Origin: Pseudomonas rhizophila
Lineage (GTDB): Bacteria > Pseudomonadota > Gammaproteobacteria > Pseudomonadales > Pseudomonadaceae
DNA: 64,000 nucleotides
Direction: 5' to 3'
NCBI RefSeq assembly: GCF_003033885.1
Contig: NZ_CP024081.1
Span: forward strand, 4,363,819 to 4,427,818
A program made the position numbers and the translations under genes. This document shows positions 8,426 to 61,682 of the stretch, piece by piece. How positions within the stretch are numbered: position 1 is the stretch's first letter; each line of letters opens with the position of its first letter. A model generated the notes under the pieces. That model saw nothing but the letters and a program-made list of their open reading frames with translations. It was not told the origin of the DNA and did no database searches.

Positions 8426-8461
8426 CACCCTCCGGCTGTATCCCGAACAAGAGAAAACGCC

Positions 8462-8782: not shown

Positions 8783-8800
8783 CCGCCAGGAGTGCACGCC

Positions 8801-28025: not shown

Positions 28026-28056
28026 TGGTGGGCGGGGAGCGAGGAGGCGAGGCGCG

Positions 28057-31000: not shown

Positions 31001-31770
31001 ACGTCCTTAACAGTGTGAACGTATCGGCAGAACTGGTCAGCAGCCTGATGCGCACCTCCAAAGCCCAGGGGCTGGGCAAGGTGGCTCAGATGATGAACGA
31101 ACACGTCCATGACTTGAGCGATTTTCTCACCACAGACCACAAAGGAAAGATGCTGCCCGGCTACCTGCTCAAGCTGGCGGAGGTGGTGGCGATAGAGCAA
31201 CAGGGCATTATCGAAGAGCTCGGGCAACTCACCAAGGGCATTGACCACATCAAAACCATTGTCGCTGCCCAGCAGTCCTATGCCGTTGCTGTCAGTATCG
31301 TCGAGACAGTACCGGTCCCGGAGTTGATCGATGATGCCTTGCGCATGAGTGCTGGATCACTGGCGCGCCAGGAGGTGACGGTGGTCAAGGACATTGCCGA
31401 CTTGCCCTTGCTGCCGCTGGACCGGCACCGGATGCTGCTGATTCTGGTGAACCTGATCCGCAATGCCAAACAAGCAATGAACGGCGTGATCGATCGCAGC
31501 CCGTGCATCACGTTCAGCGCCTTGCTGGCTGACGGGCCAGCATTGCGTATCACGGTGACCGACAACGGCAATGGGATTGCACCAGAGCATCTGGCGCGGC
31601 TCTTTTCCCATGGCTTCACTACTCGCAAAGACGGTCACGGTTTCGGCCTGCACAGCTGCGCGCTGGCCGCACAGGAAATGGGGGGCAGCTTGACCGTGCA
31701 CAGCGACGGGGCTGGACAGGGTGCAACCTTCATCCTTGATGTTCCGCTCGATGGTCCGCAGACGCAGTGA
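28057..31770 (+). CDS. Hybrid sensor kinase with HK-REC-HK architecture (TorS-like)
   Basis: The protein has 1237 residues; the GTG start follows GAGGAGG. Membrane helices lie at about 15-37 and 420-440, bounding a long helical periplasmic domain. Then come HAMP (440-495), a coiled coil, HisKA with His560 (SHELRTPL) and its ATPase domain (about 660-775: NLVSNAIKF, DSGIGI, GTGIGLAL). A receiver follows with Asp884 (VVSDVMMP). A second kinase module follows, with His978 (TTVLHNVGNVLNSV) and its own ATPase domain (NLIRNAKQAM, DNGNGI, GFGLHSCALAAQEMGG). A second full kinase after the receiver is unusual. No separate response regulator is seen nearby. Confidence 0.85.
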   Translation: MLTFRPTTDRPIAVRIGLAVAALVFLMLAVSLVNLYGLRGMVRSVDSASHSAEILASVNGATERVENFIATRDQESLSQAEGMVATAIAGLTAIAVAEAQSLKGGLDRLAAAIAALRAATLTMDGETENMTAHYGRMREATILVEQGIADGLKGLDARTAEHQAQVSNIEGAHRILDILRNGERIIIANVAKMLVTGDGAAAARNACAALPPVVEQLREVMGEPQEREPLDQLATAVVATCVTVEHLGEAPKLRGGEALRQLAVVGDVVEHLEAMLSEVDGRVAHDASDIQAATGLLHNAAALSKRFAERVATLEAQTLSFRLSPSAEVASSVGHILDELSRLARVLPSSVGPQAKATPLTVSDQIAGYRAAFARFHQASNALSDARDQVRDEARSAGQLVARFAGEARSDALVHNDRGMLATIIAGTVAILLAGAIAWSTSRFIAQPIVALASVMRRLAAGDLNAEIASAGRGDEIGIMTRAVRVFQENALRIRVLEAEAEAERQQVQASLERMVAERTDTLHQQTEVLEAQAVELIQARNQAETANQAKSDFVATVSHELRTPLTLILAPLEQLSAATIPPADWHVQIDRAQRNALRLMNRVNDILDFSKAEAGKFEVCPAPIDLNKMVGVLAEDAAMVAEGKGCTLTSSIDPALGTVFLDPRHFEKILLNLVSNAIKFTSAGGTVHLAVTLIDGERFELAVQDSGIGIAPDKLPLLFQRFSQIDNSATRHYSGTGIGLALVKDLAELMGGEVGVNSEPGRGSCFFVRLPLGAEQNTVPSEASNMQERSSSSTTSTIEQRHLRFDDGHQGSRNDQVVTQGAGDEQHPEHALRSRVLVVDDSPEMLSYLRELLQNDYIVATAVDGEQAWALLQRRPIDVVVSDVMMPKLDGFGLTARIKASAGFAHLPVILVTARGGSEACVSGLESGADDYIAKPFSPLELMARVRAALRMSHVQTELHAKSRQAGMAEIATTVLHNVGNVLNSVNVSAELVSSLMRTSKAQGLGKVAQMMNEHVHDLSDFLTTDHKGKMLPGYLLKLAEVVAIEQQGIIEELGQLTKGIDHIKTIVAAQQSYAVAVSIVETVPVPELIDDALRMSAGSLARQEVTVVKDIADLPLLPLDRHRMLLILVNLIRNAKQAMNGVIDRSPCITFSALLADGPALRITVTDNGNGIAPEHLARLFSHGFTTRKDGHGFGLHSCALAAQEMGGSLTVHSDGAGQGATFILDVPLDGPQTQ

Positions 31771-31892: not shown

Positions 31893-31916
31893 GTGACTTA
31901 ATTACAATGTGGTCAC
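31893..31916. promoter_or_regulatory. TetR regulon operator, site A (before tetR)
   Basis: GTGAC at 31893-31897 and GTCAC at 31912-31916 are separated by 14 bases. The same form occurs at 32663, 37396 and 37520. It lies 39 bases before the TetR start, indicating autoregulation. A minus-strand frame with a hydrophobic 22-residue end (31792-31860) also lies beside it, but I cannot support a gene there. Confidence 0.8.
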
Positions 31917-31954: not shown

Positions 31955-32569
31955 ATGAACCAGCCAATATCCCCCAGCGTCCGTGGCCCAGTCGACCATG
32001 ACATCCGAGACCAGATTGTCGCGGCGGCCAATGAGCATTTCAGTCAATACGGTTACGGCAAGACCACGGTGTCCGACCTGGCCAAGGCCATCGGGTTTTC
32101 CAAGGCTTACATCTACAAGTTCTTTGATTCCAAGCAGGCAATCGGCGAAGCCATTTGCAAAAATTGTCTGGCGCAAATCGTTGCCGCCGTGGAGCAGGCC
32201 ATCAACGTGGAAGGCCTCTCACCTACGGAGCGCTTTAGACGCATGGTCAAAACACTGATGGTCACGGGCGCGGACCTGTTCTTCAACGACCGCAAGCTTT
32301 ATGACATCGCCGCGTTCTCGGCCTCGGAGCGTTGGCCAAGCTCGCAGGTTTATAATGCCCGGATCAAAGACTTTGTTCTGCAGATCGTACGAGAGGGGCG
32401 AGAACTCGGTGAGTTCGAGCGCAGGACGCCACTGGACGAGACGGTAGACGCGATACATCTGGCGCTCCAGCCTTTCGTCAATCCTTTGCTGTTGCAGTAC
32501 AACCTCGATCGCATCGAGGATGCCCCAACGCTCACCTCCAATCTCATCCTGCGTAGCCTCATGCCCTGA
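31955..32569 (+). CDS. TetR-family repressor of the thioesterase/FadL/RND regulon
   Basis: The protein has 204 residues. The N-terminal HTH (IRDQIVAAANEHFSQYGYGKTTVSDLAKAIGFSKAYIYKFFDSKQAIGEAI) is complete; the ligand-binding C-terminal domain (about 70-204) is of a generic AcrR type. The start follows GAGGTGAG. A GTGAC-N14-GTCAC site precedes the gene, and three more copies precede the neighbouring thioesterase and the divergent efflux operons. It is therefore the likely repressor of all of them, released by a lipid or hydrophobic ligand. The regulon is inferred from the shared sites. Confidence 0.88.
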   Translation: MNQPISPSVRGPVDHDIRDQIVAAANEHFSQYGYGKTTVSDLAKAIGFSKAYIYKFFDSKQAIGEAICKNCLAQIVAAVEQAINVEGLSPTERFRRMVKTLMVTGADLFFNDRKLYDIAAFSASERWPSSQVYNARIKDFVLQIVREGRELGEFERRTPLDETVDAIHLALQPFVNPLLLQYNLDRIEDAPTLTSNLILRSLMP

Positions 32570-32662
32570 GTTTCGGCTGAGGGCTGCATTGCCATTGCAA
32601 CCTATTCCCGCGTGGTCCCTGCGATTTTACCTTCTGAATGAAGGTATCTATTTGTCTGGATT

Positions 32663-32686
32663 GTGACTGTTGACACAAATGGTCAC
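32663..32686. promoter_or_regulatory. TetR regulon operator, site B (before the thioesterase-FadL operon)
   Basis: GTGAC at 32663-32667 and GTCAC at 32682-32686, again 14 bases apart, with TTGACA inside. It lies 164 bases before the thioesterase ATG, and the TTGACA suggests it overlaps the -35 region. Confidence 0.8.
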
Positions 32687-32849
32687 ATGAATAAGTATGG
32701 CGCATCTGTTCTCAAGAGATCGCCATGATCCAGCGCCGCCTTCAGCTTAGGTCTTCACCGATTCCATCCACCCGTTTCGATTGGGAGAGGGCGACGCCTG
32801 CGTGCTGCTTGGTGGGGATCACGACGGGTCAGTTCAGGGGAGCGTTGAT

Positions 32850-33629
32850 ATGACCAGCTTTGCCCAGATGCTGCAGCAATTCGATCCAGACTCACCTTTT
32901 ATTGCACCACCCAACTGGCTACAGGGGCGCACTGTCTTTGGGGGCCTGTCTGCGGCGCTGTCGCTGCAAGCGGTTTTGCGTGAGTGTCCGACAGATTTCC
33001 CGCCGTTCAGGTCAGCCCAGGTGTCGTTCATTGGCCCTGTCACACAGGCCCAGACATTCGAAACCAGCGTGTTGCGTCAAGGGCGGTCAGTCACCTCGGT
33101 AGCGGTCGACTGTATGTCGGGCGATGACCTGGCGCTGCGCACCACGCTGTTATTCGCTCAGCCGCGCGAAAGCAAAATCAGCCACAACTCCTGGGGAAGA
33201 CCGCTTGTAGAGGGGCCATCCAAATACTCCACGCTGGTTCTGGATAGCAACGTCGCACCGGCTTGCGCCCATAACTTCGAGATGCGCGCGGCGGGCGGTT
33301 CATTGCCAGTATCTGGCGCAGAAAATCCCGAACTGTTGATGTGGGTGCGCCACCTGGATGCACAGGGCGTGGACCCGGCCGTCGCCTTGGTTGCGCTCGC
33401 TGACAGTTTGCCGCCGGCCGCCATGACCTGCTTCACCGAGCCCGCCGCCATCAGCTCTGCGTCCTGGATGATTGATCTACCGCAGCCGGCCGTTGCTGGT
33501 GAATGGTTTCTCATCAGTTCTTTCAGCCAGCAGGCTCTGGAAGGTTACTCATTGCAAGATATGGAAATCTGGGACGAAAGCGGTCGACGAGTGCTTTGGG
33601 CGCGTCAGACCGTGGCAATTTTCACATAA
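32850..33629 (+). CDS. Acyl-CoA thioesterase-like protein (double hot-dog)
   Basis: The protein has 259 residues from the ATG at 32850, after GGGGAG; the frame is open to 32781 but without a ribosome site. The pattern WLQGRTVFGGLSAALSLQAVLRE followed by PFRSAQVSFIGPVTQAQTFETSVLRQGRSVTSVAVDCMSGD is that of TesB-type thioesterases with two hot-dog domains. Such proteins hydrolyse acyl-CoA to free acid. It is soluble. FadL follows after 50 bases in the same operon, so acyl chains and outer-membrane hydrophobic transport are linked, under site B. Confidence 0.82.
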   Translation: MTSFAQMLQQFDPDSPFIAPPNWLQGRTVFGGLSAALSLQAVLRECPTDFPPFRSAQVSFIGPVTQAQTFETSVLRQGRSVTSVAVDCMSGDDLALRTTLLFAQPRESKISHNSWGRPLVEGPSKYSTLVLDSNVAPACAHNFEMRAAGGSLPVSGAENPELLMWVRHLDAQGVDPAVALVALADSLPPAAMTCFTEPAAISSASWMIDLPQPAVAGEWFLISSFSQQALEGYSLQDMEIWDESGRRVLWARQTVAIFT

Positions 33630-33679
33630 CACAACCACCCGCTTCATTCACCTCAGCTACTGCTGTAAGAGTTCTAATA

Positions 33680-34951
33680 ATGAAAAAAATATGGCTCAAG
33701 ACCCCGCTAGGTCTCGCTGTTGCGCTCGCCACTTCTCATGTGCTGGCGAGCGGTTTCGCGCTCAATGAGCAAAGCATCAGTGGGATGGGATCCGGGTTTG
33801 CCGGTCGCTCGTCTTCTGCTGAAGATGCGAGCACCGTTTTTGGCAATCCGGCGGGCATGTCTCGCTTGAAGAGGGAGCAGGTCAGTCTGGGGGCGGCGAC
33901 GCTTTTCGCCAAGTCCGACATCAGCCAGACTCGCAGCACCTTCGGTGGCCAGCAGGACGGCGATATGGTGCCAGCGACCACGGTGCCGATGGGTTACTAC
34001 GTCAAACCCATTGATGAGCACTGGGCGTTCGGTGTTGGTTTTTATGTTCCTTTCGGCCTGATTACCGACTATGGCAGCGGTTTCGCCGGGCGTTATTACG
34101 CCAACAAAAGCGAGGTCACGACCCTTACGTTCCAGCCCACTGTAAGCTATGCCTTTAACGACAAAGTGTCGATCGGGTTCGGTCCTACCATCAACCGTAT
34201 CAGCGGTGAGTTGTCCGGGATGGTGCCCAACCCTCTCAGCCCTGGGCGCAATGATGGAAAACTCAAAAGCACCGGCGACGACACGGCCCTGGGTTTCAAC
34301 GCGGGGATCCTGGTGCAGGCTACTGACCGAACCCGTTTAGGTCTGACGTACCACTCCAAAGTCAGTTACCACTTGGACGCCAAGACTAAGGTTACTGGTG
34401 GAGTCTTCAGCTTGCTGGGCGTCAGCGGCCAGAGCTATGACGCTTCGCTGGATGTGGATACACCGGAGTCGGTGGACTTCTCGGTGACTCATCAGCTCAA
34501 CGATGACTGGACGCTTTATGCAGGGACCACCTGGACACGCTGGAGTCGCTTCAAGGAACTGGTCATCCAGAACTCGGGTTTGCCTCCTTTGCTCAGTGGC
34601 TCGCTGGGCACCGTTGCCGAAGAGCAGAACTGGCATGACACGTGGGCCCACGCCATCGGTACGGCGTACCGGTTGAACAACCAGTGGGTGCTTCGCGCAG
34701 GCTTGTCGGTCGACCAGTCGCCCGCCAACAACACCGACCGCGGGCCACGTATTCCTACGGGCGACCGGACGGTGATCAGCTTCGGTGCAGGCTGGACGCC
34801 GGTGGACGATGTCACGATCGACGTTGCCTATTCTTATCTGTGGGAAGAGAGCGTGCAGGTCAATCACACCTCAGCGACCCGGGGCGCCTACAGCTCCACG
34901 TATAAGAACAGTGCCAGCGGCCTCGGTGCTTCTGTCAGCTATCGCTTCTGA
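33680..34951 (+). CDS. FadL/OmpP1-type outer-membrane hydrophobic transporter
   Basis: The protein has 423 residues from the ATG at 33680; longer frames overlap the thioesterase. The signal peptide (MKKIWLKTPLGLAVALATSHVLA) is cut before SGFALNEQSISGMGSGFAGRSSSAEDASTVFGNPAGMSRL, the plug-like N-terminus of the FadL family. The rest is beta-rich and ends in Phe (GASVSYRF), as in outer-membrane barrels. FadL proteins admit long-chain fatty acids or aromatic hydrocarbons. Here it shares an operon with a thioesterase and the TetR operator. Confidence 0.92.
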   Translation: MKKIWLKTPLGLAVALATSHVLASGFALNEQSISGMGSGFAGRSSSAEDASTVFGNPAGMSRLKREQVSLGAATLFAKSDISQTRSTFGGQQDGDMVPATTVPMGYYVKPIDEHWAFGVGFYVPFGLITDYGSGFAGRYYANKSEVTTLTFQPTVSYAFNDKVSIGFGPTINRISGELSGMVPNPLSPGRNDGKLKSTGDDTALGFNAGILVQATDRTRLGLTYHSKVSYHLDAKTKVTGGVFSLLGVSGQSYDASLDVDTPESVDFSVTHQLNDDWTLYAGTTWTRWSRFKELVIQNSGLPPLLSGSLGTVAEEQNWHDTWAHAIGTAYRLNNQWVLRAGLSVDQSPANNTDRGPRIPTGDRTVISFGAGWTPVDDVTIDVAYSYLWEESVQVNHTSATRGAYSSTYKNSASGLGASVSYRF

Positions 34952-34974
34952 TTGATTGCCGCTTTACGATAACG

Positions 34975-35009
34975 AAAAGGCCGGGGCACAGGTTGCCTCC
35001 GGCCTTTTT
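34975..35009. terminator. Bidirectional terminator between fadL-like and SDR genes
   Basis: AAAAGGCCGG pairs with CCGGCCTTTTT around a 14-base loop. The A-run on one side and T-run on the other suit termination of both the FadL-like gene (plus) and the SDR gene (minus), which converge here. Confidence 0.9.
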
Positions 35010-35052
35010 GTAGGCATTCCTTTCCCTTCGGGAAGGCCTTCACCTCGCCCAC

Positions 35053-35838
35053 TCAGACGCCCATGACGTGCGCCATGATGCCTTGGTGAAACCGGCGAGG
35101 CGTGGCCCAGGTCAAGACCGTAATCGCTTTGTTGCCAAAGCCTGGCACGACACTCATGCGTCCGGCTTGCAGCGCACGGATTCCCGCAGCGACAACGGGC
35201 TGGGGCTGCATCATCACCATTTTCAGGGCCGGTGTGAGCTTTTGCCTGGCGCTTTGTGCAAATCCGGTGTCCGACATCCCGGGGCAAAGTGCGGTCACGA
35301 CGACGCCGTCGGTTTTGAGTTCACGATGAAGCGCGTCAGAGAAACGAAGCACATAGGCCTTTGCGGCAGAGTAAACGGCGAAATTCTTCACGCCCTGGAA
35401 GGCCAGCAGGCTGGCAACCATCAGGATATGTCCGCGTTTTCGGGCCCGCATGTCAGTCGCGAAGAGGCGCGTCAGGGCTGTCAGGCTGGCGATGTCCAAA
35501 TCGATCATGGCCAGGGATTGTTCCACGGATTGATCCAGAAAGGGCCCTTGCAAGCCATGACCGGCATTGTTGATGAGCACATCGATCACGACACCGCGCT
35601 CGCTCAGTCGCTGATACAGTTCGATGATCGCCGGAATCGAGGACAGGTCGACTTGCTCGACGAGCACCTCAACGCCGAAGCGTTCGCGCAACTGCGCCGA
35701 CAGCGCCTGAAGTTTATCCAATCGGCGTGCTACCAGGACCAGCGATTTCCCTTGTGCTGCGTACTGCCGGGCAAACTCCTCGCCAAATCCGCTCGACGCG
35801 CCCGTGATGAGCACCCAAGAGTTATCGTTCGTTTTCAT
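35053..35838 (-). CDS. Short-chain dehydrogenase/reductase of the efflux locus
   Basis: The protein has 261 residues from the ATG at 35838; the frame extends to 35898 but reaches almost to the stop of the upstream gene. The cofactor motif is TGASSGFG (about 11-18). The catalytic Ser is in ILMVASLLAF and the Tyr-Lys in YSAAKAY. The class is the ketoreductase-like DltE/YqjQ group, which acts on acyl or keto substrates. It is the second gene of the minus-strand operon behind the NodT-type gene, under site C. Confidence 0.88.
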   Translation of the reverse strand: MKTNDNSWVLITGASSGFGEEFARQYAAQGKSLVLVARRLDKLQALSAQLRERFGVEVLVEQVDLSSIPAIIELYQRLSERGVVIDVLINNAGHGLQGPFLDQSVEQSLAMIDLDIASLTALTRLFATDMRARKRGHILMVASLLAFQGVKNFAVYSAAKAYVLRFSDALHRELKTDGVVVTALCPGMSDTGFAQSARQKLTPALKMVMMQPQPVVAAGIRALQAGRMSVVPGFGNKAITVLTWATPRRFHQGIMAHVMGV

Positions 35839-35907
35839 ATTGCTGTTCTCTGCTGGTTTTAGCTGAAGGAGGAGGGCGCGCAGGTGGTGCCACGTCACCT
35901 GGTTACG

Positions 35908-37368
35908 TCATCGACTTGCCACAGGCTCGGCGTGAGCAGGCTGCCAGCCACCACCCAGTGCCCTGAACGCGGCGACCGCCGCTCGTGCCGATTCGGTTCG
36001 CGCTTGCGCTCGGGCATCGGAAGCTCGCAGCAGTGTTTCGTCGGCTTGCAGGACGTCGATGAGGCTGGCAGTGCCTTTCTCATAGGCAATGAACGAGGAT
36101 TGACGAGCCTGAGTCAGAGCTGTCTCTGCTGCGGTGAGGGTGGTTGCCTGGGCTTCGCGATTGACCAACGAGGAGAACGCGTTCTCGACATCCTCGCTGG
36201 CGCGCAGCGCGGACTGGCGATAAGCGGCCAGGGCCTCGGCTTCCTGCCCCTTGGCTTGATCGATCTGTGCGTTGATACGGCCAAAGTCGAAGAGCCTCCA
36301 GCGCAGTCCCAATACACCCGCCGACTGGCTGGCGCCGCCGGTAAAAAGGTTGCCGGCGGATACGGCGGTGGCGCTACCGAGCAGCGCGCTGAGGGAGAAT
36401 TTTGGATAGTACTCAGCAACGGCCTCTGCGATGCGTGCATTGGAGGCCGCTAGACGGCGCTCGGCCACGATGAGATCGGGCCGGCGGCGCAGCAGATCGG
36501 CAGGCGTTCCCATGGCGGTTATCTGGGGTGCCAGAGGAATGCTTCGCGCATTGGCCAGTTGTGTGCGATGCGTGCCGGGCGGCGTGCCGAGCATGATGTC
36601 CAGTGCGTTCATCGCAGCATCCAGGCCAATTTGCAGGACCGGCACTGTCGCTTGGACCTGTGCCAAGGCGCCCTCGGTCTGGCGAACCTGATAGCTGGCG
36701 GCGAGGCCCTTGCTGTAGAGCAGTTGGACCTTCTCCAGCAGTTCCTGTTGCGTTTTGACCTGTTGGTTCGCAATGCCCAAACGGGTCTGCAATCCGCGGA
36801 CAGTGATGTAGATGTCGGCGGTCTGCGCAGCGACGGCCAGGCGGGTGGCCGTGGCGCCCGCTGCGGACGCCTGGTATTCGGCCAGGGCGGCCTCGCGTGA
36901 CCGGCGCAGGCTGCCAAACAAATCGACCTCCCAGCTGGCCCCGAGGTTGAGTTCGTAAGCGCTTCCATACCGATCATAGCCAGGCGTTGAATTCAGCACC
37001 TGGCCGAGTGGGATTTCGACTGACTGATAGGCGCGCGCGGCCTGGCCGCTGATATTGCCCGAGGGCAGCAAAGCAGCATCGGCCGCACCCAGGCCGGCCC
37101 GCGCCTGCGCGACGCGCGCCGAGGCCTGCGCCAGGTCCAGGTTCTGCTCAAGTGCCTTGGCGACGAATTCGGTCAGCGCTGGGTCATCAAAGCCTTCCCA
37201 CCAAGCTACGAGACTGGCCGGCATCGTCGCGGGCCGCTGTTCGACAGAGGGCTGACCGAGGAAACGGTCCGATAGCGCAGTGTCCGGACGGTGATAGTCC
37301 GGACCAACGGCGCAGCCTGCCATCAAGCTGGCACTCAGTATCAGAGCAGCGGGGTGGAGTGGCGACAT
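35908..37368 (-). CDS. NodT/OprM-type outer-membrane efflux lipoprotein
   Basis: The protein has 486 residues. The lipobox is LMAGC with Cys19, followed by AVGPDYHRPDTALSDRFL, the usual NodT start. Two outer-membrane-efflux repeats follow: ALEQNLDLAQASARVAQARAGLGAADAALLPSG and LLRRRPDLIVAERRLAASNARIAEAVAEYYPKFSLSALLG. It is the outer-membrane channel of the tripartite pump encoded divergently (membrane-fusion protein at 37591, RND at 38697). The operator at 37396 lies 28 bases before its start. Confidence 0.93.
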   Translation of the reverse strand: MSPLHPAALILSASLMAGCAVGPDYHRPDTALSDRFLGQPSVEQRPATMPASLVAWWEGFDDPALTEFVAKALEQNLDLAQASARVAQARAGLGAADAALLPSGNISGQAARAYQSVEIPLGQVLNSTPGYDRYGSAYELNLGASWEVDLFGSLRRSREAALAEYQASAAGATATRLAVAAQTADIYITVRGLQTRLGIANQQVKTQQELLEKVQLLYSKGLAASYQVRQTEGALAQVQATVPVLQIGLDAAMNALDIMLGTPPGTHRTQLANARSIPLAPQITAMGTPADLLRRRPDLIVAERRLAASNARIAEAVAEYYPKFSLSALLGSATAVSAGNLFTGGASQSAGVLGLRWRLFDFGRINAQIDQAKGQEAEALAAYRQSALRASEDVENAFSSLVNREAQATTLTAAETALTQARQSSFIAYEKGTASLIDVLQADETLLRASDARAQARTESARAAVAAFRALGGGWQPAHAEPVASR

Positions 37369-37395
37369 GGAGATTCCTGAAGTGGAGATTGATGT

Positions 37396-37419
37396 GTGAC
37401 CATATTATATATTGGTCAC
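37396..37419. promoter_or_regulatory. TetR regulon operator, site C (before nodT-like gene)
   Basis: GTGAC at 37396-37400 and GTCAC at 37415-37419 with a 14-base, AT-only-but-two centre. It faces the minus-strand outer-membrane-factor/SDR operon. Confidence 0.8.
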
Positions 37420-37519
37420 TTTCTGTCAATGAACTCCTCATGGGTGGGTGCTCTCGCTGGGGGCTATGGTCGCAATAAGTGTTGAGAAAATTGTAATTTA
37501 GTCTCTGGTCGCAATAGTT

Positions 37520-37543
37520 GTGACCATTGACAGTAATGGTCAC
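37520..37543. promoter_or_regulatory. TetR regulon operator, site D (before the membrane-fusion/RND operon)
   Basis: GTGAC at 37520-37524 and GTCAC at 37539-37543, 14 bases apart, with TTGACA inside as at site B. It lies 47 bases before the membrane-fusion ATG. A short direct repeat GGTCGCAATA (about 37468 and 37507) lies beside it. Confidence 0.8.
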
Positions 37544-37590
37544 AAGCCAGAGAATGTGACACCTGTTTCTATTCTTCAAGTAGGGAATCT

Positions 37591-38700
37591 ATGCGCCGGC
37601 TTCGACCTGTCACCCTTGCCGCTTGCTTGTTGCCTCTCGTCCTGACGGCGTGTGGCGACTCTTCCACCGTCCAAGATCCGCGCACGCTCGCTCCTTTGGT
37701 GAGGGTCTCTGAAGTTCAGGATTCGTCCGGCCTCTGGCGTTCATTCACCGGAGTCGTGGCGGCTCGCGTCCAGAGTGACTTGGGTTTCCGAGTGTCGGGC
37801 AAAGTGCTTGAGCGTCTGGTCGATACCGGGCAGACCGTCAAGCGTGGTCAGCCGCTCATGCGTCTGGATCCCATCGACTTAGGCTTGCAAGCACGAGCGC
37901 AGCAAGAAGCGGTCACTGCCGCCAAAGCCCGTGCCAAACAGACCGCAGATGACGAGGCTCGTTATCGTGAGCTGGTGGCCGCAGGCGCCATTTCCGCATC
38001 GGGCTACGATCAGATCAAAGCCGCAGCCGATACCACGAAGGCACAACTCAGCGCCGCGCAAGCTCAGGCTGACGTGGCCCGGAATGCGTCGGGCTATGCC
38101 GTACTGCTGGCAGACGCCGATGGCGTTGTCATGGAGACGCTCGCCGAACCCGGGCAGGTGGTCAGCCCTGGGCAGCCGGTGGTTCGACTGGCACGGGCCG
38201 GTCAGCGCGAAGCCATCGTGCAATTGCCAGAAACCTTGCGTCCGGCCGCAGGGTCCACCGCTCAGGCGACGCTTTACGGCAACACCTCGGCTGCTGTCAC
38301 TGCCAAGCTGAGGCTGCTGTCGGATTCGGCTGACCCTGTGACACGCACCTTTGAGGCGCGGTATGTATTGGCGGGCGGGCTGGCCAATGCGCCGCTGGGT
38401 TCGACCGTCACCCTTCGGATCGCCGAAGACGCCGCGCAAGGGCCGGTCCTGCAAGTTCCGATCGCTGCCCTCTATGACCCGGGCAAGGGAACCGGTGTGT
38501 GGGTCATTGCCGGCGAACCGGCGAAAGTCAGCTGGCGGCCTGTTCAGGTCCTGGGCTTGAGTGACGACGCTGCCCGAGTTGCAGGTGAGCTCAAGGTTGG
38601 CGAGCGCATTGTCGCGCTGGGCGCGCATCTACTGCGCGATGGCGAGGAAGTGCGACTGAGCCCACAGGGTGACGTGAAGGTTGCCGGGGGCCGTCAATGA
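37591..38700 (+). CDS. RND efflux membrane-fusion lipoprotein
   Basis: The protein has 369 residues with a lipobox (VLTACGDSS, Cys21). The HlyD-type layout is clear: lipoyl half FRVSGKVLERLVDTGQTVKRGQPLMRLDPIDL, then a helical hairpin (about 95-150), the second lipoyl half (GVVMETLAEPGQVVSPGQPVVRLA), a barrel, and the membrane-proximal domain. It links the RND pump to the outer-membrane factor. Its stop overlaps the RND start by four bases (ATGA). Confidence 0.93.
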   Translation: MRRLRPVTLAACLLPLVLTACGDSSTVQDPRTLAPLVRVSEVQDSSGLWRSFTGVVAARVQSDLGFRVSGKVLERLVDTGQTVKRGQPLMRLDPIDLGLQARAQQEAVTAAKARAKQTADDEARYRELVAAGAISASGYDQIKAAADTTKAQLSAAQAQADVARNASGYAVLLADADGVVMETLAEPGQVVSPGQPVVRLARAGQREAIVQLPETLRPAAGSTAQATLYGNTSAAVTAKLRLLSDSADPVTRTFEARYVLAGGLANAPLGSTVTLRIAEDAAQGPVLQVPIAALYDPGKGTGVWVIAGEPAKVSWRPVQVLGLSDDAARVAGELKVGERIVALGAHLLRDGEEVRLSPQGDVKVAGGRQ

Positions 38701-41700
38701 GTCTCAATTTATCGGCACTCGCCGTTCGCGAGCGCTCCATTACCGTGTTCCTGATCTTTCTGATTGCCGTCGCGGGTACCTTGGCGTTCTTCCAGTTGGG
38801 GCGTGCCGAGGACCCGCCGTTTACGGTCAAGCAGTTGACCGTCATCACTGCATGGCCGGGCGCGACTGCCCAGGAGATGCAGGACCAAGTCGCCGAGCCG
38901 CTGGAAAAGCGCCTGCAAGAACTGAAGTGGTACGACCGCACGGAAACCTACACCCGTCCAGGTCTGGCTTTCACCATGGTCTCGCTGGTCGATCGCACGC
39001 CACCCTCGCAAGTGCAGGAGGAGTTCTATCAGGCGCGCAAGAAACTCGACGATGAGGCCACTCGGCTGCCGGCGGGCGTCATTGGGCCGATGGTCAATGA
39101 CGAGTATTCGGACGTTACCTTCGCGCTGTTCGCCCTGAAGGCCAAAGGCGAACCGCAGCGCCTGCTGGTGCGAGATGCCGAAGCGTTGCGCCAGCGCCTG
39201 TTGCATGTGGCGGGCGTGAAGAAGGTCAACATCATCGGTGAGCAGCCCGAGCGAATCTTTGTGTCGTTCTCCCATGATCGACTGGCGACCTTGGGCGTCT
39301 CGCCCCAGGATATCTTCGCCGCGCTGAACAGCCAGAATCTGCTCACGCCTGCTGGCTCGATCGAAACCAAAGGGCCGCAAGTCGTCCTGCGGGTGGACGG
39401 TGCCTTCGATAAATTGGCGAAAATTCGCGACACACCGCTTGCGATCCAGGGGCGCACGCTGAAGCTCTCGGACGTCGCGACAGTCGAGCGCGGATATGAA
39501 GATCCGGCCACTTTCCTGGTTCGCAATAACGGCGAAGAGGCGCTGCTGCTGGGGATCATAATGCGCGAGGGCTGGAACGGCCTGGACCTGGGCAAGGCAC
39601 TGGACGCCGAGACGACCAAGATCAATGAAGGCATGCCACTGGGCATGACGCTGACCAAGGTCACCGATCAAGCCGTGAACATCGACTCGGCCGTCGGTGA
39701 GTTCATGGTCAAGTTTTTTGTCGCGCTGCTGGTTGTCATGCTCGTTTGCTTTCTCAGCATGGGCTGGCGTGTAGGCGTTGTGGTCGCAGCCGCCGTACCG
39801 TTGACGCTGGCGATAGTGTTTGTGGTGATGGCGGCCACCGGAAAGAACTTCGACCGGATTACCCTGGGTTCGCTGATCCTGGCGCTTGGGCTGTTGGTGG
39901 ACGACGCGATCATCGCGATCGAAATGATGGTGGTAAAGATGGAGGAGGGCTACGACCGGATCAAAGCGTCCGCGTATGCCTGGAGCCACACCGCCGCGCC
40001 GATGCTGTCCGGTACGCTGGTGACGGCGATTGGCTTCATGCCCAACGGCTTTGCGCAATCGACCGCCGGCGAATACACCAGCAACATGTTCTGGATCGTC
40101 GGCATTGCCCTGATCGCCTCCTGGGTCGTCGCGGTGGCTTTTACCCCTTATCTTGGGGTGAAGCTATTGCCGGATATCAAGCCGGTCGAGGGCGGTCACG
40201 CGGCTATCTACAACACGCGTCATTACAATCGCTTTCGCCAGCTCCTGACCCGCGTCATCGCGCGCAAATGGTGGGTGGCCGGCACCGTGGTCGCGACATT
40301 TGTCGTGGCGATTCTCGGCATGAGCCTGGTCAAGAAGCAATTCTTCCCGACCTCAGACCGTCCCGAGGTATTGGTCGAGGTGCAGATGCCCTATGGAACC
40401 TCCATCGAGCAGACCAGTGCCGCCACGGCCAAGGTCGAGGCCTGGTTGCAAAAGCAGGATGAGGCGAAAATCGTCACCGCCTATATCGGTCAAGGTGCGC
40501 CACGCTTCTACCTGGCGATGGCGCCGGAACTCCCTGACCCGTCCTTCGCCAAGATTGTGGTGCTGACGACCAGCCAGGAGGCCCGTGAAACCCTCAAGTT
40601 CCGTCTTCGCGAAGCGGTCGCCGAAGGGCTTGCCCCGCAGGCGCGGGTGCGGGTGACTCAACTGGTGTTTGGTCCGTATTCGCCATTCCCCGTGGCTTAC
40701 CGGGTGATGGGCCCCGATCCGTCAACGTTGCGCGAGATCGCCGGTCGGGTACAGGACGTCATGCAAGCGAGCCCGATGATGCGGACCGTCAATACCGACT
40801 GGGGGCCACTGACGCCGACGCTGCATTTCAGTCTTGATCAAGATCGTTTGCAGGCGGTGGGCCTGACCTCGAATGCCGTCGCCCAGCAGTTGCAGTTCCT
40901 GCTCACGGGGGTGCCGATTACGGCGGTTCGCGAGGACATCCGTTCGGTGCAAGTGGTTGGTCGCGCCGCAGGTGATATTCGACTCGATCCCGCCAAGATC
41001 GAAGGTTTTACCCTGGTGGGCACGGCGGGACAGCGTATTCCGCTGTCCCAGGTCGGCGAGGTGGATGTGCGCATGGAGGACCCAATCCTGCGGCGGCGTG
41101 ATCGCACGCCGACCATTACCGTGCGCGGCGACATTGCCGAAGGCTTGCAGCCACCGGACGTATCGAGCGCAATCCTCAAACAACTGCAGCCGATCATGGA
41201 CACCCTTCCTGACGGGTACCGGATCGAGCAGGCGGGGGCCATCGAGGAGTCGGGCAAGGCCGGCCAGGCGATCGTGCCGCTGCTGCCGATCATGGTTGCC
41301 CTGACGCTGCTGATCATCATCCTCCAGGTACGCTCGATCTCGGCGATGGTCATGGTGTTCTTCACCGCGCCGCTGGGATTGATTGGCGTGGTGCCGACCT
41401 TGCTGATCTTCCAGCAGCCGTTTGGAATCAACGCCCTGGTCGGCCTGATCGCGCTCTCGGGTATTTTGATGCGCAATACGCTGATTTTGATTGGGCAAAT
41501 CCACCACAACGCGCAAGAAGGGCTGGACCCGTTCCACGCGGTGATCGAGGCCACCGTGCAACGGGCCCGGCCGGTGCTGCTGACGGCGCTGGCGGCCATC
41601 CTGGCATTCATCCCCCTGACACACTCCGTCTTCTGGGGGACGCTGGCCTACACGCTGATCGGAGGGACCTTCGTCGGCACCATCATGACGCTGGTATTTC

Positions 41701-41777
41701 TGCCGGCGATGTATTCCATCTGGTTCAAGATCCATCCTGACAAACAGGTCCAAACTGAAACGGCGAGGCTGGCGTAA
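38697..41777 (+). CDS. RND-family efflux pump, inner-membrane component
   Basis: The protein has 1026 residues, the full length of HAE1/MexB-type pumps, with twelve helices and two large periplasmic loops. N-terminal NLSALAVRERSITVFLIFLIAVAGTLAFFQLGRAEDPPFTVK is typical of the shorter-named MdtB/YegN-like branch. The proton-relay Asp pair is in LGLLVDDAIIAIEMM (about 400). It is translationally coupled to the membrane-fusion gene. The substrate class is not readable from sequence, but the lipid-type neighbours suggest amphipathic or acyl compounds. Confidence 0.93.
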   Translation: MSLNLSALAVRERSITVFLIFLIAVAGTLAFFQLGRAEDPPFTVKQLTVITAWPGATAQEMQDQVAEPLEKRLQELKWYDRTETYTRPGLAFTMVSLVDRTPPSQVQEEFYQARKKLDDEATRLPAGVIGPMVNDEYSDVTFALFALKAKGEPQRLLVRDAEALRQRLLHVAGVKKVNIIGEQPERIFVSFSHDRLATLGVSPQDIFAALNSQNLLTPAGSIETKGPQVVLRVDGAFDKLAKIRDTPLAIQGRTLKLSDVATVERGYEDPATFLVRNNGEEALLLGIIMREGWNGLDLGKALDAETTKINEGMPLGMTLTKVTDQAVNIDSAVGEFMVKFFVALLVVMLVCFLSMGWRVGVVVAAAVPLTLAIVFVVMAATGKNFDRITLGSLILALGLLVDDAIIAIEMMVVKMEEGYDRIKASAYAWSHTAAPMLSGTLVTAIGFMPNGFAQSTAGEYTSNMFWIVGIALIASWVVAVAFTPYLGVKLLPDIKPVEGGHAAIYNTRHYNRFRQLLTRVIARKWWVAGTVVATFVVAILGMSLVKKQFFPTSDRPEVLVEVQMPYGTSIEQTSAATAKVEAWLQKQDEAKIVTAYIGQGAPRFYLAMAPELPDPSFAKIVVLTTSQEARETLKFRLREAVAEGLAPQARVRVTQLVFGPYSPFPVAYRVMGPDPSTLREIAGRVQDVMQASPMMRTVNTDWGPLTPTLHFSLDQDRLQAVGLTSNAVAQQLQFLLTGVPITAVREDIRSVQVVGRAAGDIRLDPAKIEGFTLVGTAGQRIPLSQVGEVDVRMEDPILRRRDRTPTITVRGDIAEGLQPPDVSSAILKQLQPIMDTLPDGYRIEQAGAIEESGKAGQAIVPLLPIMVALTLLIIILQVRSISAMVMVFFTAPLGLIGVVPTLLIFQQPFGINALVGLIALSGILMRNTLILIGQIHHNAQEGLDPFHAVIEATVQRARPVLLTALAAILAFIPLTHSVFWGTLAYTLIGGTFVGTIMTLVFLPAMYSIWFKIHPDKQVQTETARLA

Positions 41778-41833
41778 GTCAGCAAACGCATGCTGCTGTC
41801 AGTGGATGTCGACTGAAAAATGAAGAGGTTTTT

Positions 41834-43123
41834 ATGATGACTGCCGAAGGTCAAAAGCGAATCGTCGTCACAGGCATGGGCATTGTCAGCCCCCTGGGTT
41901 GTGCAGTGGAAGAAGTCTGGCTGAGGTTGCTGGCAGGACGTTCCGGTATCCGTAACCTGTCTGGCGATATCACCGAGGGTACCGGCGTTGCGGTGGGCGG
42001 TCAGGTGCCGTCTCTGCAAGAGGATGCCGTTGCGGGGTATGACCCCGAGCGCTTCATCTCGGTCAAGGATCGCAAGAAGATGGACCGTTTCATCGAGTTC
42101 GCCCTCGTTGCTGCCGATGAAGCCCTGGCGCAGGCAGGCTGGCATCCGACGCAAGCCTCAGACCAGGAACGCACCGCGACAATCATTTCATCGGGCGTCG
42201 GTGGCTTTGGCGCAATTGCCGACGCTGTACGCACCACCGATGCGCGTGGCCCGCGCCGCTTGTCGCCATTCACCGCGCCGGCCTTTCTCGCCAACATGGC
42301 GGCCGGGCACGTTTCCATCCGGCATGCGCTCAAGGGGCCTCTCGGTGCGCCTGTAACGGCTTGTGCCGCCGGGGTGCAAGCCATTGGAGATGCGGCCAGG
42401 CTCATCAGAAGCGGTGAGGCGGATATCGCCATATGTGGCGGTACTGAAGCGGCGATAGACCGTGTGACCCTGGGCTGTTTTGCCGCCGCCCGCGCACTGT
42501 CCACGGGCTTTGCCGAGCACCCTCAGGAGGCCTCGCGTCCCTTTGATCGCGACCGTGACGGTTTCGTCATGGCCGAAGGGGCCGGGCTGCTGGTGATCGA
42601 GTCGCTGGAGCATGCCCTGGCCCGTGGTGCCAAGCCCCTGGCCGAACTGGTCGGCTATGGCACCAGCGCCGATGCCTATCACCTGACCGCAGGCCCGGAA
42701 GACGGCAGCGGCGCACGGCGCGCCATGCAGCAGGCTCTGCGCCAGGCGGGGGTCAGCCCTGCGGACGTGCAGCATATCAATGCCCACGCGACCTCCACAC
42801 AGGTGGGCGATAACGGGGAGTTGGCAGCGATTCGCTCGGTGTTCGGGGCTGACTCTGGCGTGGCTATCACCTCGACCAAGTCCGCCACCGGGCACCTTCT
42901 GGGGGCGGCGGGGGGCATTGAAGCGATCTTCACCGTGCTCGCGCTGCGTGATCAGGTCGTACCGCCGACGCTGAACCTGCTTCATCCCGATGAAGCCGCA
43001 GAAGGGCTCGATCTGGTCGCCCTGAATGCCCGGAAGATGTCGATCACCCATGCGCTCTCAAATGGATTCGGGTTCGGCGGCGTTAACGCCAGCGTCCTGT
43101 TTCGTCGTTGGGATGCTAAATAG
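41834..43123 (+). CDS. FabF-like beta-ketoacyl-ACP synthase (KAS II type)
   Basis: The protein has 429 residues (a second ATG at 41837 would be equal). The catalytic triad is complete: Cys177 in GAPVTACAAGV, His318 in INAHATST and His354 in ATGHLLGAAGG; Lys349 (STKS) is also conserved. It should condense an acyl thioester with malonyl-ACP. No acyl carrier protein, malonyl transferase or FabG/FabZ lies beside it, so it is not a housekeeping fab gene. It follows the RND gene by 56 bases on the same strand and is probably in that operon. It could make or extend an exported lipid, or be a drug-insensitive spare KAS. Confidence 0.88.
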   Translation: MMTAEGQKRIVVTGMGIVSPLGCAVEEVWLRLLAGRSGIRNLSGDITEGTGVAVGGQVPSLQEDAVAGYDPERFISVKDRKKMDRFIEFALVAADEALAQAGWHPTQASDQERTATIISSGVGGFGAIADAVRTTDARGPRRLSPFTAPAFLANMAAGHVSIRHALKGPLGAPVTACAAGVQAIGDAARLIRSGEADIAICGGTEAAIDRVTLGCFAAARALSTGFAEHPQEASRPFDRDRDGFVMAEGAGLLVIESLEHALARGAKPLAELVGYGTSADAYHLTAGPEDGSGARRAMQQALRQAGVSPADVQHINAHATSTQVGDNGELAAIRSVFGADSGVAITSTKSATGHLLGAAGGIEAIFTVLALRDQVVPPTLNLLHPDEAAEGLDLVALNARKMSITHALSNGFGFGGVNASVLFRRWDAK

Positions 43124-43134
43124 AGACGGCGAAC

Positions 43135-44838
43135 TCACACCGGTTGCTTCACCTTCCGATGCACCCATCGTGCTTCGCTTTGCAGCTCCAGGACCTGCCA
43201 ATGGAAGCGCTCAAGCGAAGCATTGTGGCCGACGCTGATCAGGATCGTTTCTGGCAGCGTCTCTTTGAGCAGTTGATAGCAGCGCGCCTCGTTGGTTGAA
43301 TCCAGTGCCGAACTGCTCTCGTCGAGGAACAGCACCGTCGGGCGGGCCAGCAGGGCCCTGACGAACGCACAGCGTTGCTGTTCGCCGACGCTGAGGGTCT
43401 GCGCCCAGTCCCGCTCTTGCTCCAACAGATCGCTCAGGTGCTGCAGGCCAACTTGCTCCATGGCCTGGCGCAGCGCGGCATCTTCTTCGCGACGGGGTGG
43501 GTTGGGGTACCACAGCGCTTCACGCAGACTGCCCAACGGCAGGTAGGGTTTCTGCGCAAGCGTCAGGGCACGCTCACGGTCATAACAGCTTGAGCCGCGA
43601 GCGTGATGCCAAAGCCCGGTAATCGTGCGGATCAGCGTTGATTTGCCGTAGCCGGACGGCGCGCGGATCATCAGGCTGTCACCGGGCTTGAGCGACAGAT
43701 TGAAGTCTTTGAACAACGGCCGGCCGTTCGGCAGCCAGATGTCCAGGTCCTTGATATCGAGACCGTGGGCCTGTTGTTCGAGCCTGACCTGGGACTTGAC
43801 CTCAACGTTATCCAGGCGCTCCTGGAAGCCGATCAAGCGGTCAATCACCGACTTCCATTCCGACAGCTCCGGGAACACGCTCACCAGGTAGGCGATGGCG
43901 GCGTGCACTTCGCCGAAGGCCGCGCTTATCTGTGTCAGGCGGCCGAGGGGAAAGGCGCCGGCAAAGAACTGTGGCGCCATGATGAACATCGGGATGACCG
44001 TCGCGCTGCGCAAGTAGAAGGTCGAGTAGCCCATGATCAGCTTCTGTTTTTTCACCAGCGCCCAGAAGTTTTCCAGCGCCGCCTCCAGGCGGTGGTTGAA
44101 GCGTTCGTTCTCTACGACTTCGCCGCGGTATTGCGCTACCGAGTCAGCGTTCTCCCGCAGGCGGATGAGCGAGAAACGAAAATCCGCTTCACGTCGCTGC
44201 TGCATGAAATTCAGGCTGGGCAGCGCGCGTCCCAGCCAGAAGGCCAGGCCGGTGCCCAGGAGCGCATACACCAGGGCGATCCACACCAGCAGTCCCGGAA
44301 TGATGATGGACTGGTCGTTGAACGGCACGCTGACCAGGCTTGAGGCCTGCCAGAGGATATGCAGGAAGGAAAACAGCGACACCACCGAAGTCAACAGGCC
44401 CAGGCTCAATTTGAGCGACTTGACGATGAACAGGTCGATGTCTTCGGCGATCCGCTGATCGGGGTTGTCGACCTCGGTTTCTGTCAGCTTCAGCTTCTGG
44501 TAGCGCTGGCTGTCCAGCCATTGATCAAGCATGTTGCGGGTCGCCCAGCGCCGCCAGCGGATGGTCAGCTTCTGCTGGAAGTGGAACGCGCCCACGGTGA
44601 AGGCGGCCGTGCCGATCTGCAGCAGGATGAACTGCAGGCTGCCGATCAGGAAACCGTGGTAGTCCAGGGCCTGCAAGGCATTATAGAAATGCAGGTTCCA
44701 GAAGTTGGTGAGGATGTTGACCCCGACCAGGCACAGGGTCATCAGCACGGTGGCCAACAGCAGCAACAGGGCCGGGTACTTTTCCTCGGATGCCCAGAAA
44801 GGCCGCGCGAGACGCCAGAAATTGCGGAGTGTGTGCAT
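43135..44838 (-). CDS. YddA/SbmA-type ABC transporter (fused membrane and ATPase domains)
   Basis: The protein has 567 residues. Membrane helices occupy about 20-330 (an ABC_membrane_2 domain like SbmA/BacA), followed by the ATPase: Walker A is APSGYGKST, signature LSVGEQQR, Walker B and D-loop PTVLFLDESSSALD. Such proteins import or export peptides and lipid-like molecules through the inner membrane; homologues stand in several Pseudomonas siderophore loci. A Fur-box-like sequence lies upstream at 44903, shared with the divergent FhuF gene. A role in moving the siderophore or its precursor is therefore likely but not shown. Confidence 0.82.
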   Translation of the reverse strand: MHTLRNFWRLARPFWASEEKYPALLLLLATVLMTLCLVGVNILTNFWNLHFYNALQALDYHGFLIGSLQFILLQIGTAAFTVGAFHFQQKLTIRWRRWATRNMLDQWLDSQRYQKLKLTETEVDNPDQRIAEDIDLFIVKSLKLSLGLLTSVVSLFSFLHILWQASSLVSVPFNDQSIIIPGLLVWIALVYALLGTGLAFWLGRALPSLNFMQQRREADFRFSLIRLRENADSVAQYRGEVVENERFNHRLEAALENFWALVKKQKLIMGYSTFYLRSATVIPMFIMAPQFFAGAFPLGRLTQISAAFGEVHAAIAYLVSVFPELSEWKSVIDRLIGFQERLDNVEVKSQVRLEQQAHGLDIKDLDIWLPNGRPLFKDFNLSLKPGDSLMIRAPSGYGKSTLIRTITGLWHHARGSSCYDRERALTLAQKPYLPLGSLREALWYPNPPRREEDAALRQAMEQVGLQHLSDLLEQERDWAQTLSVGEQQRCAFVRALLARPTVLFLDESSSALDSTNEARCYQLLKETLPETILISVGHNASLERFHWQVLELQSEARWVHRKVKQPV

Positions 44839-45721: not shown

Positions 45722-45774
45722 GGTTGGGCGCGCGTTCAATCCTTACCCCACTGGTTTCTGGCACAGCAAGTCCT

Positions 45775-45860
45775 TGTGGGAGCGAGCCTGCTCGCGATAG
45801 CGGCGGGTCAGCTTGCATCAATGCTGAATAGTCGACTTCATCGCGAGCAAGCTCACACAC
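45775..45860. repeat. Pseudomonas REP pair (REPIN-like)
   Basis: TGTGGGAGCGAGCCTGCTCG followed by CGATAGCGG is a classic pseudomonad REP unit. An inverted partner, ATCGCGAGCAAGCTCACACA, lies at 45840-45859. The two face each other around about 25 bases, as in a REPIN/BIME doublet. It sits in the 178-base gap between the convergent FhuF and exporter genes. Confidence 0.85.
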
Positions 45861-45899
45861 ATTTGGGTTGGGGGTTGCCCTGGAGTTGTGGGCGCATTC

Positions 45900-47549: not shown

Positions 47550-47550
47550 T

Positions 47551-61604: not shown

Positions 61605-61682
61605 TTCAAAGTCTTGAAAACTCAAGTGAGTCGATCAGGGCGCCGCGCCGGTCCGAGACCTGCGCGGGCGCGGCGTCGCTCG

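What the first reader, a model, noticed from the sequence alone, without database searches (positions are those of the whole stretch)
31955..43123. Candidate undescribed lipid-handling efflux system: thioesterase, FadL, SDR, NodT, MFP, RND and a lone FabF-like ketosynthase
Efflux pumps usually travel with a regulator only. Here the regulon adds an acyl-CoA thioesterase, an outer-membrane FadL, a ketoreductase-like SDR and a KAS II enzyme with an intact Cys-His-His triad, but no carrier protein. Two readings fit: production and export of a modified fatty acyl compound, or defence against a fatty-acid-synthesis inhibitor by efflux plus a spare KAS. I cannot decide between them from sequence.
Basis: inference. 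Interest (0 to 1): 0.8.

Follow-up and report, generated by a model that had tools for sequence, protein, structure and literature searches.

The report
Inducible spare fatty-acid synthase with pump
A soil-type Pseudomonas keeps a drug-type pump, a fatty-acid channel and a reserve fatty-acid-building enzyme behind one shared switch, and relatives of the switch-plus-enzyme unit occur in other bacteria and on some plasmids, which suggests an untested defence against natural poisons that block fatty-acid synthesis.

Summary
All eight genes are present and form one regulon: four palindromes, GTGACY-N12-GGTCAC, stand before tetR, thioesterase-fadL, nodT-SDR and MFP-RND-fabF; they are four of the five copies in the 5.95-Mb genome. 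"Undescribed" is wrong for the core: by arrangement it is the P. putida fabF2 cluster, whose TetR represses it and whose FabF2 can replace E. coli FabB and FabF (PMC8319022). The eight-gene set is not conserved (5 of 80 loci). New here: the operator and its extent; a FabF2 clade in Alpha- and Gammaproteobacteria, mostly beside a TetR or HxlR regulator, with RND, MFS or MATE pumps or none, including HxlR-FabF pairs on multiresistance plasmids; catalytic residues kept, but 20 positions fixed differently from 30 housekeeping FabFs, including the gating loops. Best reading: inducible target replacement plus efflux against ketoacyl-synthase inhibitors, confidence 0.55. No inhibitor, inducer or pump substrate is known. 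Production and export of an acyl compound is disfavoured.

The parts
31893..31916 (+). operator 1 GTGACT-N12-GGTCAC before tetR
31955..32569 (+). TetR-family repressor (counterpart of Pput_2425 by arrangement)
32663..32686 (+). operator 2, contains TTGACA, before thioesterase-fadL
32781..33629 (+). two-domain hotdog acyl-CoA thioesterase (4HBT_3/4HBT_3C); start uncertain
33680..34951 (+). FadL/TodX outer-membrane channel (ORF opens at 33503; start chosen at the MKK that begins a signal-peptide-like stretch)
35053..35838 (-). short-chain dehydrogenase/reductase, second gene of the nodT-SDR pair (ORF opens at 35898)
35908..37368 (-). NodT-type outer-membrane efflux protein
37396..37419 (.). operator 3, on the nodT-SDR side; overlaps a promoter-like TTGACA-16-TAATAT (37429-37402, minus)
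37520..37543 (.). operator 4, inside perfect 11-bp arms (37518-37545), on the MFP-RND-fabF side; overlaps TTGACA-17-GAGAAT (37527-37555)
37591..38700 (+). periplasmic adaptor (MFP)
38697..41777 (+). RND permease
41834..43123 (+). FabF2-clade 3-ketoacyl-ACP synthase, triad C177/H318/H354

Best explanation
An inducible target-replacement and efflux island. At rest the TetR protein sits on four palindromes that overlap promoter boxes. A compound that blocks ketoacyl-ACP synthases (a KAS inhibitor such as a cerulenin- or thiolactomycin-like natural product), or a signal of blocked synthesis, releases it. Then MFP-RND-NodT pumps the compound out, and FabF2, a KAS that can do the work of both FabB and FabF and whose gating loops and acyl pocket differ from those of housekeeping enzymes, keeps fatty-acid synthesis going. 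FadL brings in outside fatty acids as a further bypass; thioesterase and SDR clear stalled or modified acyl groups. Shown here by sequence: the genes, the operators, their conservation, the FabF2 clade and its fixed differences. Shown by others for the P. putida cluster: repression by TetR, and replacement of FabB and FabF by FabF2. Inferred: that TetR binds these sites, the inducer, the pump substrate, inhibitor tolerance, and the roles of FadL, thioesterase and SDR.
For: (1) Four operators, four of the five in the whole genome; 75 of 75 loci with a window-type TetR have at least one, and only 2 of 62 other loci do, both cut off before tetR. (2) The constant unit is regulator + FabF2. Of 28 FabF2-clade genes from 299 Pseudomonadota genomes, 26 have a TetR or HxlR homologue in the cluster (24 within 6.5 kb; the window and G071 at 9.3 and 7.5 kb; one of the 24 is weak, 35% at 3.7 kb), and one more has a GntR gene; a pump was recognised beside only 10. 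Control: 0 of 30 housekeeping fabF loci have such a regulator within 1.5 kb, against 20 of 26 FabF2 genes. (3) On the FabF tree the regulator type changes at least 7 times (the regulator family at least 4) and the exporter at least 9: RND, EmrAB-like MFS, other MFS, MATE. (4) Minimal TetR-FabF (Pantoea, P. orientalis) and HxlR-FabF cassettes have no pump, thioesterase or SDR recognised beside them; HxlR-FabF sits in multiresistance islands with sul1, tet(G), floR. (5) Triad, K335 and F400 kept, but 20 positions fixed and never seen in 30 housekeeping FabFs, including F133T, P272G, G304A, S397G, T403V; P272 is a thiolactomycin contact in EcFabB (review passage). (6) P. putida FabF2 supports growth of an E. 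coli fabB(Ts) fabF strain and replaces FabB when derepressed. (7) Replacement of KAS enzymes by an insensitive one is the platensimycin producers' self-resistance.
Against: No inhibitor test exists. Deleting fabF2 in P. putida raised, not lowered, resistance to ampicillin, erythromycin and carbenicillin, though none of these is a KAS inhibitor; deleting the pump genes did not change the fabB-mutant phenotype. The pocket changes could serve substrate choice instead. The recurring SDRs and thioesterases are not needed for target replacement. The promoter scan was not above chance. The closest solved sequence (4ddo; entry 4f32 has the same sequence) shares the clade's fixed residues in the alignment; I recall, from no call, that 4f32 holds the KAS inhibitor platencin, which would mean that this member is not closed to that drug. 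Presence on multiresistance plasmids may be hitch-hiking.
Confidence: 0.55

Rival explanations
1. A back-up for membrane lipid balance (the published reading): FabF2 restores unsaturated fatty acids when FabB fails or when catabolic acyl-CoAs disturb the ratio; the pump is an unrelated passenger.
For: In P. putida F1 loss of FabB selects TetR mutants that derepress fabF2; the authors call the pump unrelated and propose UFA compensation. FadL and thioesterase fit lipid traffic.
Against: Pump and FabF2 relatives stay together from Pseudomonas to Rhizobiaceae with a different TetR and a different gene order (RND 64.5%, FabF 67%), and other pump families are recruited elsewhere. In the window pump and fabF2 share one operator. 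Drug-type regulators (HxlR, TetR) and plasmid islands fit lipid balance poorly.
Confidence: 0.22
2. Tolerance of toxic lipophilic chemicals (solvents, plant or microbial electrophiles, free fatty acids): the pump removes them, FabF2 resets membrane composition, SDR, thioesterase and, in Rhizobiaceae, GST detoxify.
For: SDR genes recur nearby; GST beside Agrobacterium clusters and one aldehyde-dehydrogenase-like gene in L077.
Against: Does not explain why regulator + FabF2 without a recognised pump is the commoner state (18 of 28) or why gating-loop residues are fixed.
Confidence: 0.13
3. Production and export of a modified fatty-acyl compound, with KAS elongating, SDR reducing, thioesterase releasing and the pump exporting.
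For: KAS, ketoreductase-like SDR, thioesterase and exporter share one operator set in the window; SDRs of several subfamilies and two thioesterase families recur.
Against: No homologue of E. coli AcpP, FabH or FabD at E<=1e-4 in the window or 139 fetched loci (for the first set); minimal TetR-FabF and HxlR-FabF cassettes have no SDR, thioesterase or pump recognised; P. putida FabF2 works in ordinary FAS II.
Confidence: 0.08

Closest known systems
Pseudomonas putida F1 Pput_2425-2424-2423-fabF2 cluster, PMC8319022 (KT2440 PP_3303 annotated as KAS II, PP_3302 as RND transporter)
   Same: TetR first, two efflux genes, fabF2 last; TetR represses its own and the pump promoter, which matches operators seen before tetR and MFP in L046, P. 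farsensis (that this species is of the P. putida group is recalled)
   Different: The window adds thioesterase, FadL, NodT and SDR under the same operator, and its tetR lies 9.3 kb from fabF. The Pput sequences themselves were not available here; orthology rests on arrangement
PtmP3/PtnP3 of Streptomyces platensis (platensimycin/platencin self-resistance by target replacement)
   Same: Extra FabF-type KAS that takes over housekeeping KAS functions
   Different: PtmP3 lies in a producer's biosynthetic cluster and replaces FabF and FabH; FabF2 is stand-alone, inducible, sometimes pump-linked, and replaces FabB and FabF; inhibitor insensitivity untested
RND operons with accessory enzymes, such as SmeU1VWU2X with two SDRs and BpeEF-OprC with LlpE (recalled, from no call)
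   Same: Metabolic enzymes co-transcribed with an RND pump
   Different: No KAS
Mobile extra fabI alleles in triclosan resistance (recalled, from no call)
   Same: Mobile spare copy of a fatty-acid-synthesis target
   Different: FabI, not FabF; resistance shown there, not here

Membership tests
FabF (KAS II) | Model score above curated cut-off and Cys-His-His triad | tested here: met
   TIGR03150 537 bits, cut-off 493.75; C177/H318/H354
P. putida fabF2 cluster | TetR, MFP, RND and FabF2 genes together | tested here: met
   published arrangement
P. putida fabF2 cluster | KAS in a clade distinct from housekeeping FabF | tested here: met
   110 rows in one clade, SH-aLRT 100 (quick tree, only three outgroup rows); the Pput protein itself was not in the tree
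P. putida fabF2 cluster | TetR represses its own and the pump-fabF2 promoter | tested here: inconclusive
   operators at both promoters; binding not tested; repression shown in P. putida
P. putida fabF2 cluster | FabF2 complements fabB and fabF | not testable with these tools
   shown for the P. putida protein
RND tripartite efflux | RND permease, adaptor and outer-membrane factor | tested here: met
   NodT is divergent to MFP with paired operators
Target-replacement resistance (PtmP3-like) | Extra copy of an essential target, functional in the host pathway | tested here: inconclusive
   extra copy shown; function only for the P. putida protein
Target-replacement resistance (PtmP3-like) | Insensitive to the inhibitor and confers resistance | not testable with these tools
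   only indirect: fixed changes in gating loops and pocket
Acyl-compound biosynthesis and export cluster | Dedicated carrier protein or other FAS genes | tested here: not met
   no AcpP, FabH or FabD homologue in 140 records incl. the window, E<=1e-4

The most novel reading that the evidence does not exclude
The FabF2 clade is a widespread, horizontally spread family of target-replacement resistance determinants against natural ketoacyl-synthase inhibitors: a KAS with rebuilt gating loops, nearly always beside a drug-type repressor, paired at need with whichever pump is at hand (RND, MFS or MATE), and already present as a two-gene HxlR-FabF cassette on multiresistance plasmids.
Probability: 0.42. 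Interest if true: 0.85.

Novelty: new variant of a known kind. Interest (0 to 1): 0.62.

Why it matters
FabF and FabB are studied as antibacterial targets (reviews). If FabF2 enzymes tolerate such inhibitors, an environmental and partly plasmid-borne resistance reservoir exists now, and its regulators could serve as reporters for unknown KAS inhibitors in soil. It would also join a 'cryptic' KAS and an 'unrelated' pump of P. putida into one explained system, with a defined operator that makes the inducer directly searchable.

Tried and rejected
Rejected: an eight-gene conserved system (5 of 80 loci); a lipid-export pathway (no carrier protein, minimal cassettes); a link to the neighbouring siderophore NRPS cluster (the adjoining ABC gene was found beside fabF only in L008 of the 80 loci, and L009, with FabF 98% identical, lacks it); a natural-product cluster beside the Kosakonia FabF (3142-aa ORF, no Pfam family at E<=1e-8).

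Led nowhere: AlphaFold model of FabF (15 rows, mean pLDDT 57), so no fold search was run; paper searches for FabF2 as a resistance gene, for PP_3303 induction and for plasmid-borne fabF: nothing on the point in the listings. The library holds only open-licence PMC papers, listings were short, and of the 449 papers fifteen were listed.

Dropped rows and limits: one search kept the best 80 of 187 relatives and favours close kin. In the tree L006 was dropped as a duplicate of L064. The 111 rows still hold duplicates (L006/L064, L091/L099). The 30 housekeeping FabFs are E. coli, one Sinorhizobium record and 28 of the 30 loci (L139 and L140 were not extracted). Own-genome hits L003-L005 were left out as other KAS genes; an L003 column was read on the wrong strand and is not used. 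The first change counts (8 and 11) rested on four wrong labels (L014, L051, L051b, L113) and on ten rows, the window among them, whose tetR lay beyond the distance limit; one search corrects them (7 and 9). Regulators and exporters were found by similarity to known examples, so their counts are lower bounds; in G390 an adaptor gene at the end of the stretch hints at a pump that was not counted. In G003 only a 264-aa FabF match was seen, and the RND of G109 is split over two matches; both are among the 16 linked pumps. Of the 50 plasmid records, 12 contexts were read (10, plus L088 and L089).
Full report
What is there. The window is from a Pseudomonas: its FabF is 99% identical to that of Pseudomonas sp. 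Q11 and 98% to P. tehranensis. The order is tetR, thioesterase, fadL on the plus strand; SDR and nodT on the minus strand, convergent to fadL; then MFP, RND, fabF on the plus strand, MFP and nodT being divergent. The own genome has four further matches to this FabF, the closest at 50% identity.

One regulon. Comparing the intergenic stretches of the window gave a perfect palindrome with 11-bp arms before MFP and a common pattern GTGACY-N12-GGTCAC at four places: 31893 (before tetR), 32663 (before the thioesterase), 37396 (before nodT) and 37520 (before MFP). The window holds 6 strand matches against 0.04 expected. The whole 5.95-Mb genome holds five such sites, four of them here; the reversed control pattern gave two matches. 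The fifth, at 896485, has an unlike interior and lies just before a minus-strand reading frame. Sites 32663 and 37520 contain TTGACA, a -35 box, and site 37396 overlaps a promoter-like pair on the minus strand; the scanner's own promoter count was not above chance (4 found, 3.5 expected), so the promoter assignment is suggestive only.

The operator is conserved. Of 75 loci (window included) with a TetR at least 50% identical to the window's, 75 have at least one site (last half-site allowed to begin with A or G) and 59 at least two; 69 of 70 testable MFP genes have one within 400 bp upstream. NodT has one in 46 of 57 and tetR in 51 of 76, so those sites are less constant or less strict. Of 62 loci without such a TetR, two have sites, and both (L014, L114) are cut off before tetR. 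Where the thioesterase lies upstream, 6 of 6 have the site before it; where it is missing, the site stands before fadL in L021, L022 and L031 (not in L010 or L016); in four pump-less Pantoea loci and in P. orientalis L024 it stands before fabF. In L008, a close relative, thioesterase, fadL and SDR are gone and an orphan site with a changed -35 box remains. In four other loci (L029, L035, L036, L037) thioesterase and fadL sit directly downstream of fabF instead (L032: fadL only). Two arrangements of the same two genes argue for a working link, but an optional one.

What is core. Among the 80 loci anchored on FabF (best 80 of 187 relatives, so biased to close kin), 62 have MFP and RND, 48 of those have NodT, 15 of 80 have FadL, 10 a window-type SDR (15 another SDR subfamily, c27, some of these in the same loci as other extras), 9 the thioesterase, and 5 all eight genes. 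From the pump's side: 22 of 198 genomes of the family have an RND at least 78% identical at E<=1e-300 (one split); in 16 a FabF match follows within about 3.1 kb (in G003 only a 264-aa match), in 5 none was found in the stretch fetched, and in one it lies 7 kb away beside its own HxlR gene. From the KAS side, sampled evenly over the phylum: 27 of 299 genomes carry 28 FabF2-clade genes (E<=1e-155). Of these 28, 24 have a TetR or HxlR homologue within 6.5 kb (one of them weak, G476), the window and G071 have their TetR at 9.3 and 7.5 kb in the same cluster, G030 has a GntR gene beside FabF, and in G361 no regulator was recognised; 10 have a recognised pump; 8 of the 26 examined have an SDR within 3 kb. 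None of 30 housekeeping fabF loci has such a regulator within 1.5 kb, against 20 of 26 FabF2 genes. So the constant unit is regulator plus FabF2.

Partners are swapped. FabF2 genes are found with RND pumps under a window-type TetR; with a related RND (64.5% identity in Agrobacterium) in another gene order under another TetR on Agrobacterium, Rhizobium, Bosea, Methylovirgula and Gemmobacter plasmids; with HxlR and an EmrAB-like HlyD-MFS pair in Pantoea, Erwinia and Enterobacter; with another TetR and a single-hotdog thioesterase and no recognised pump in Stutzerimonas; and with nothing recognised but TetR or HxlR. On the FabF tree the regulator type changes at least 7 times (regulator family 4) and the exporter 9 times (which corrects wrong labels behind the 8 and 11). 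SDRs of several subfamilies recur; c27 has 50-55% identical counterparts on a Methylovirgula and an Agrobacterium plasmid. In some alphaproteobacterial loci an ftsZ homologue follows fabF. HxlR-FabF pairs sit among tet(G) and floR genes (and sul1 in one) on plasmids of P. paraeruginosa, Enterobacter hormaechei and Klebsiella oxytoca; 8 of 72,556 plasmid records hold at least 80% of the pair at near identity and no E. coli genome of the collection matches.

The enzyme. The 110 FabF2 rows form one clade (SH-aLRT 100) on a long branch away from E. coli FabF, the own FabF1 and a Sinorhizobium FabF (quick tree, three outgroup rows, long branches). In E. coli FabF numbering C163, H303, H340, K335 and F400 are kept in all rows that cover them. 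Against 30 housekeeping FabFs, 20 positions are at least 95% fixed in FabF2 and its residue is never seen in the others, among them L111F, F133T, T/S165A, H168Q, L197V, P272G, G304A, S397G and T403V. P272 lines a thiolactomycin pocket in EcFabB (passage of review PMC10054515); Thr270-Pro273 belong to gating loop 2, and the GFGG residues 399-402 to the other gating loop (passages of PMC7138838). This is the pattern expected of an inhibitor-tolerant enzyme, but also of one with a different substrate range.

What is known. Dong et al. 2021 (PMC8319022; I read the abstract, sections 4, 9 and 10 of the outline, and passages) describe P. putida F1 Pput_2425 (TetR), two efflux genes and fabF2. The TetR represses its own and the Pput_2424 promoter; derepressed FabF2 replaces FabB; expressed in E. 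coli it supports growth of fabB(Ts) and fabB(Ts) fabF strains and has weak FabF activity. They call the pump unrelated, propose a back-up for unsaturated fatty acids, and state that all similar clusters contain a TetR; searches show HxlR and GntR too. KT2440 PP_3303 is listed as a putative KAS II in PMC2569920 and PP_3302 as an RND transporter in PMC10715066 (passages); that they are the counterparts of this cluster is my inference. Deleting PP_3302 in a strain lacking two other pumps had a minor growth effect under iron limitation. Target replacement by an insensitive KAS is the self-resistance of platensimycin producers (passage of PMC6332302), and use of outside fatty acids as a bypass of FAS II inhibitors such as cerulenin is argued in PMC11271967 (abstract and passages).

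Judgement. The most economical account of a KAS able to replace both elongating enzymes, kept silent behind drug-type repressors, altered in the gating loops, paired with changing pumps and carried on plasmids, is inducible target replacement plus efflux. The step from there to a named inhibitor is not shown by anything here. The result against it, that fabF2 deletion raised resistance to three unrelated antibiotics, and the recalled platencin-bound structure of a clade member keep the confidence at 0.55.

Noticed in passing
window 45038-63950: Siderophore-type NRPS cluster directly downstream: FhuF-like iron reductase, cyclic-peptide export ABC transporter, NRPS genes. Among the 80 loci the adjoining ABC gene was seen beside fabF only in L008.
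   Followed up: partly
window 43135-44838 (minus): ABC_membrane_2/SbmA_BacA domain fused to an ABC ATPase, between fabF and the siderophore genes.
   Followed up: no
window 26895-31770: A possible periplasmic substrate-binding protein (by eye; no NCBIfam match at 1e-20) followed by a 1237-aa hybrid sensor kinase with an extra C-terminal ATPase-like domain.
   Followed up: no
L088 9341-10348, L089 9362-10354, L096 9380-10372, L186 9421 on, L198 9465 on: An ftsZ homologue of about 330 aa (short or partial in L198) lies directly after fabF2 in rhizobial and related loci; perhaps a second spare target.
   Followed up: partly
L090, L091, L099 (about 7490-9263): Two-gene HxlR-FabF cassette inside multiresistance islands on plasmids; the records' resistance-gene predictions shown do not list it.
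   Followed up: partly
plasmid NC_004771, 1678-1890, and 61-bp matches in four plasmid records of Phaeobacter, Gemmobacter and Rhodobacter: Short matches to the 3' end of the same mobile fabF, perhaps remnants of a longer mobile segment.
   Followed up: no
G000:C1:896485-896508 (L122 1501-1524): Fifth operator-like site of the genome, just upstream of a minus-strand reading frame; chance or a further regulon member.
   Followed up: partly
family genomes: A second group of RND pumps at 50-59% identity to the window's pump is common in the family; it was not treated as orthologous.
   Followed up: no
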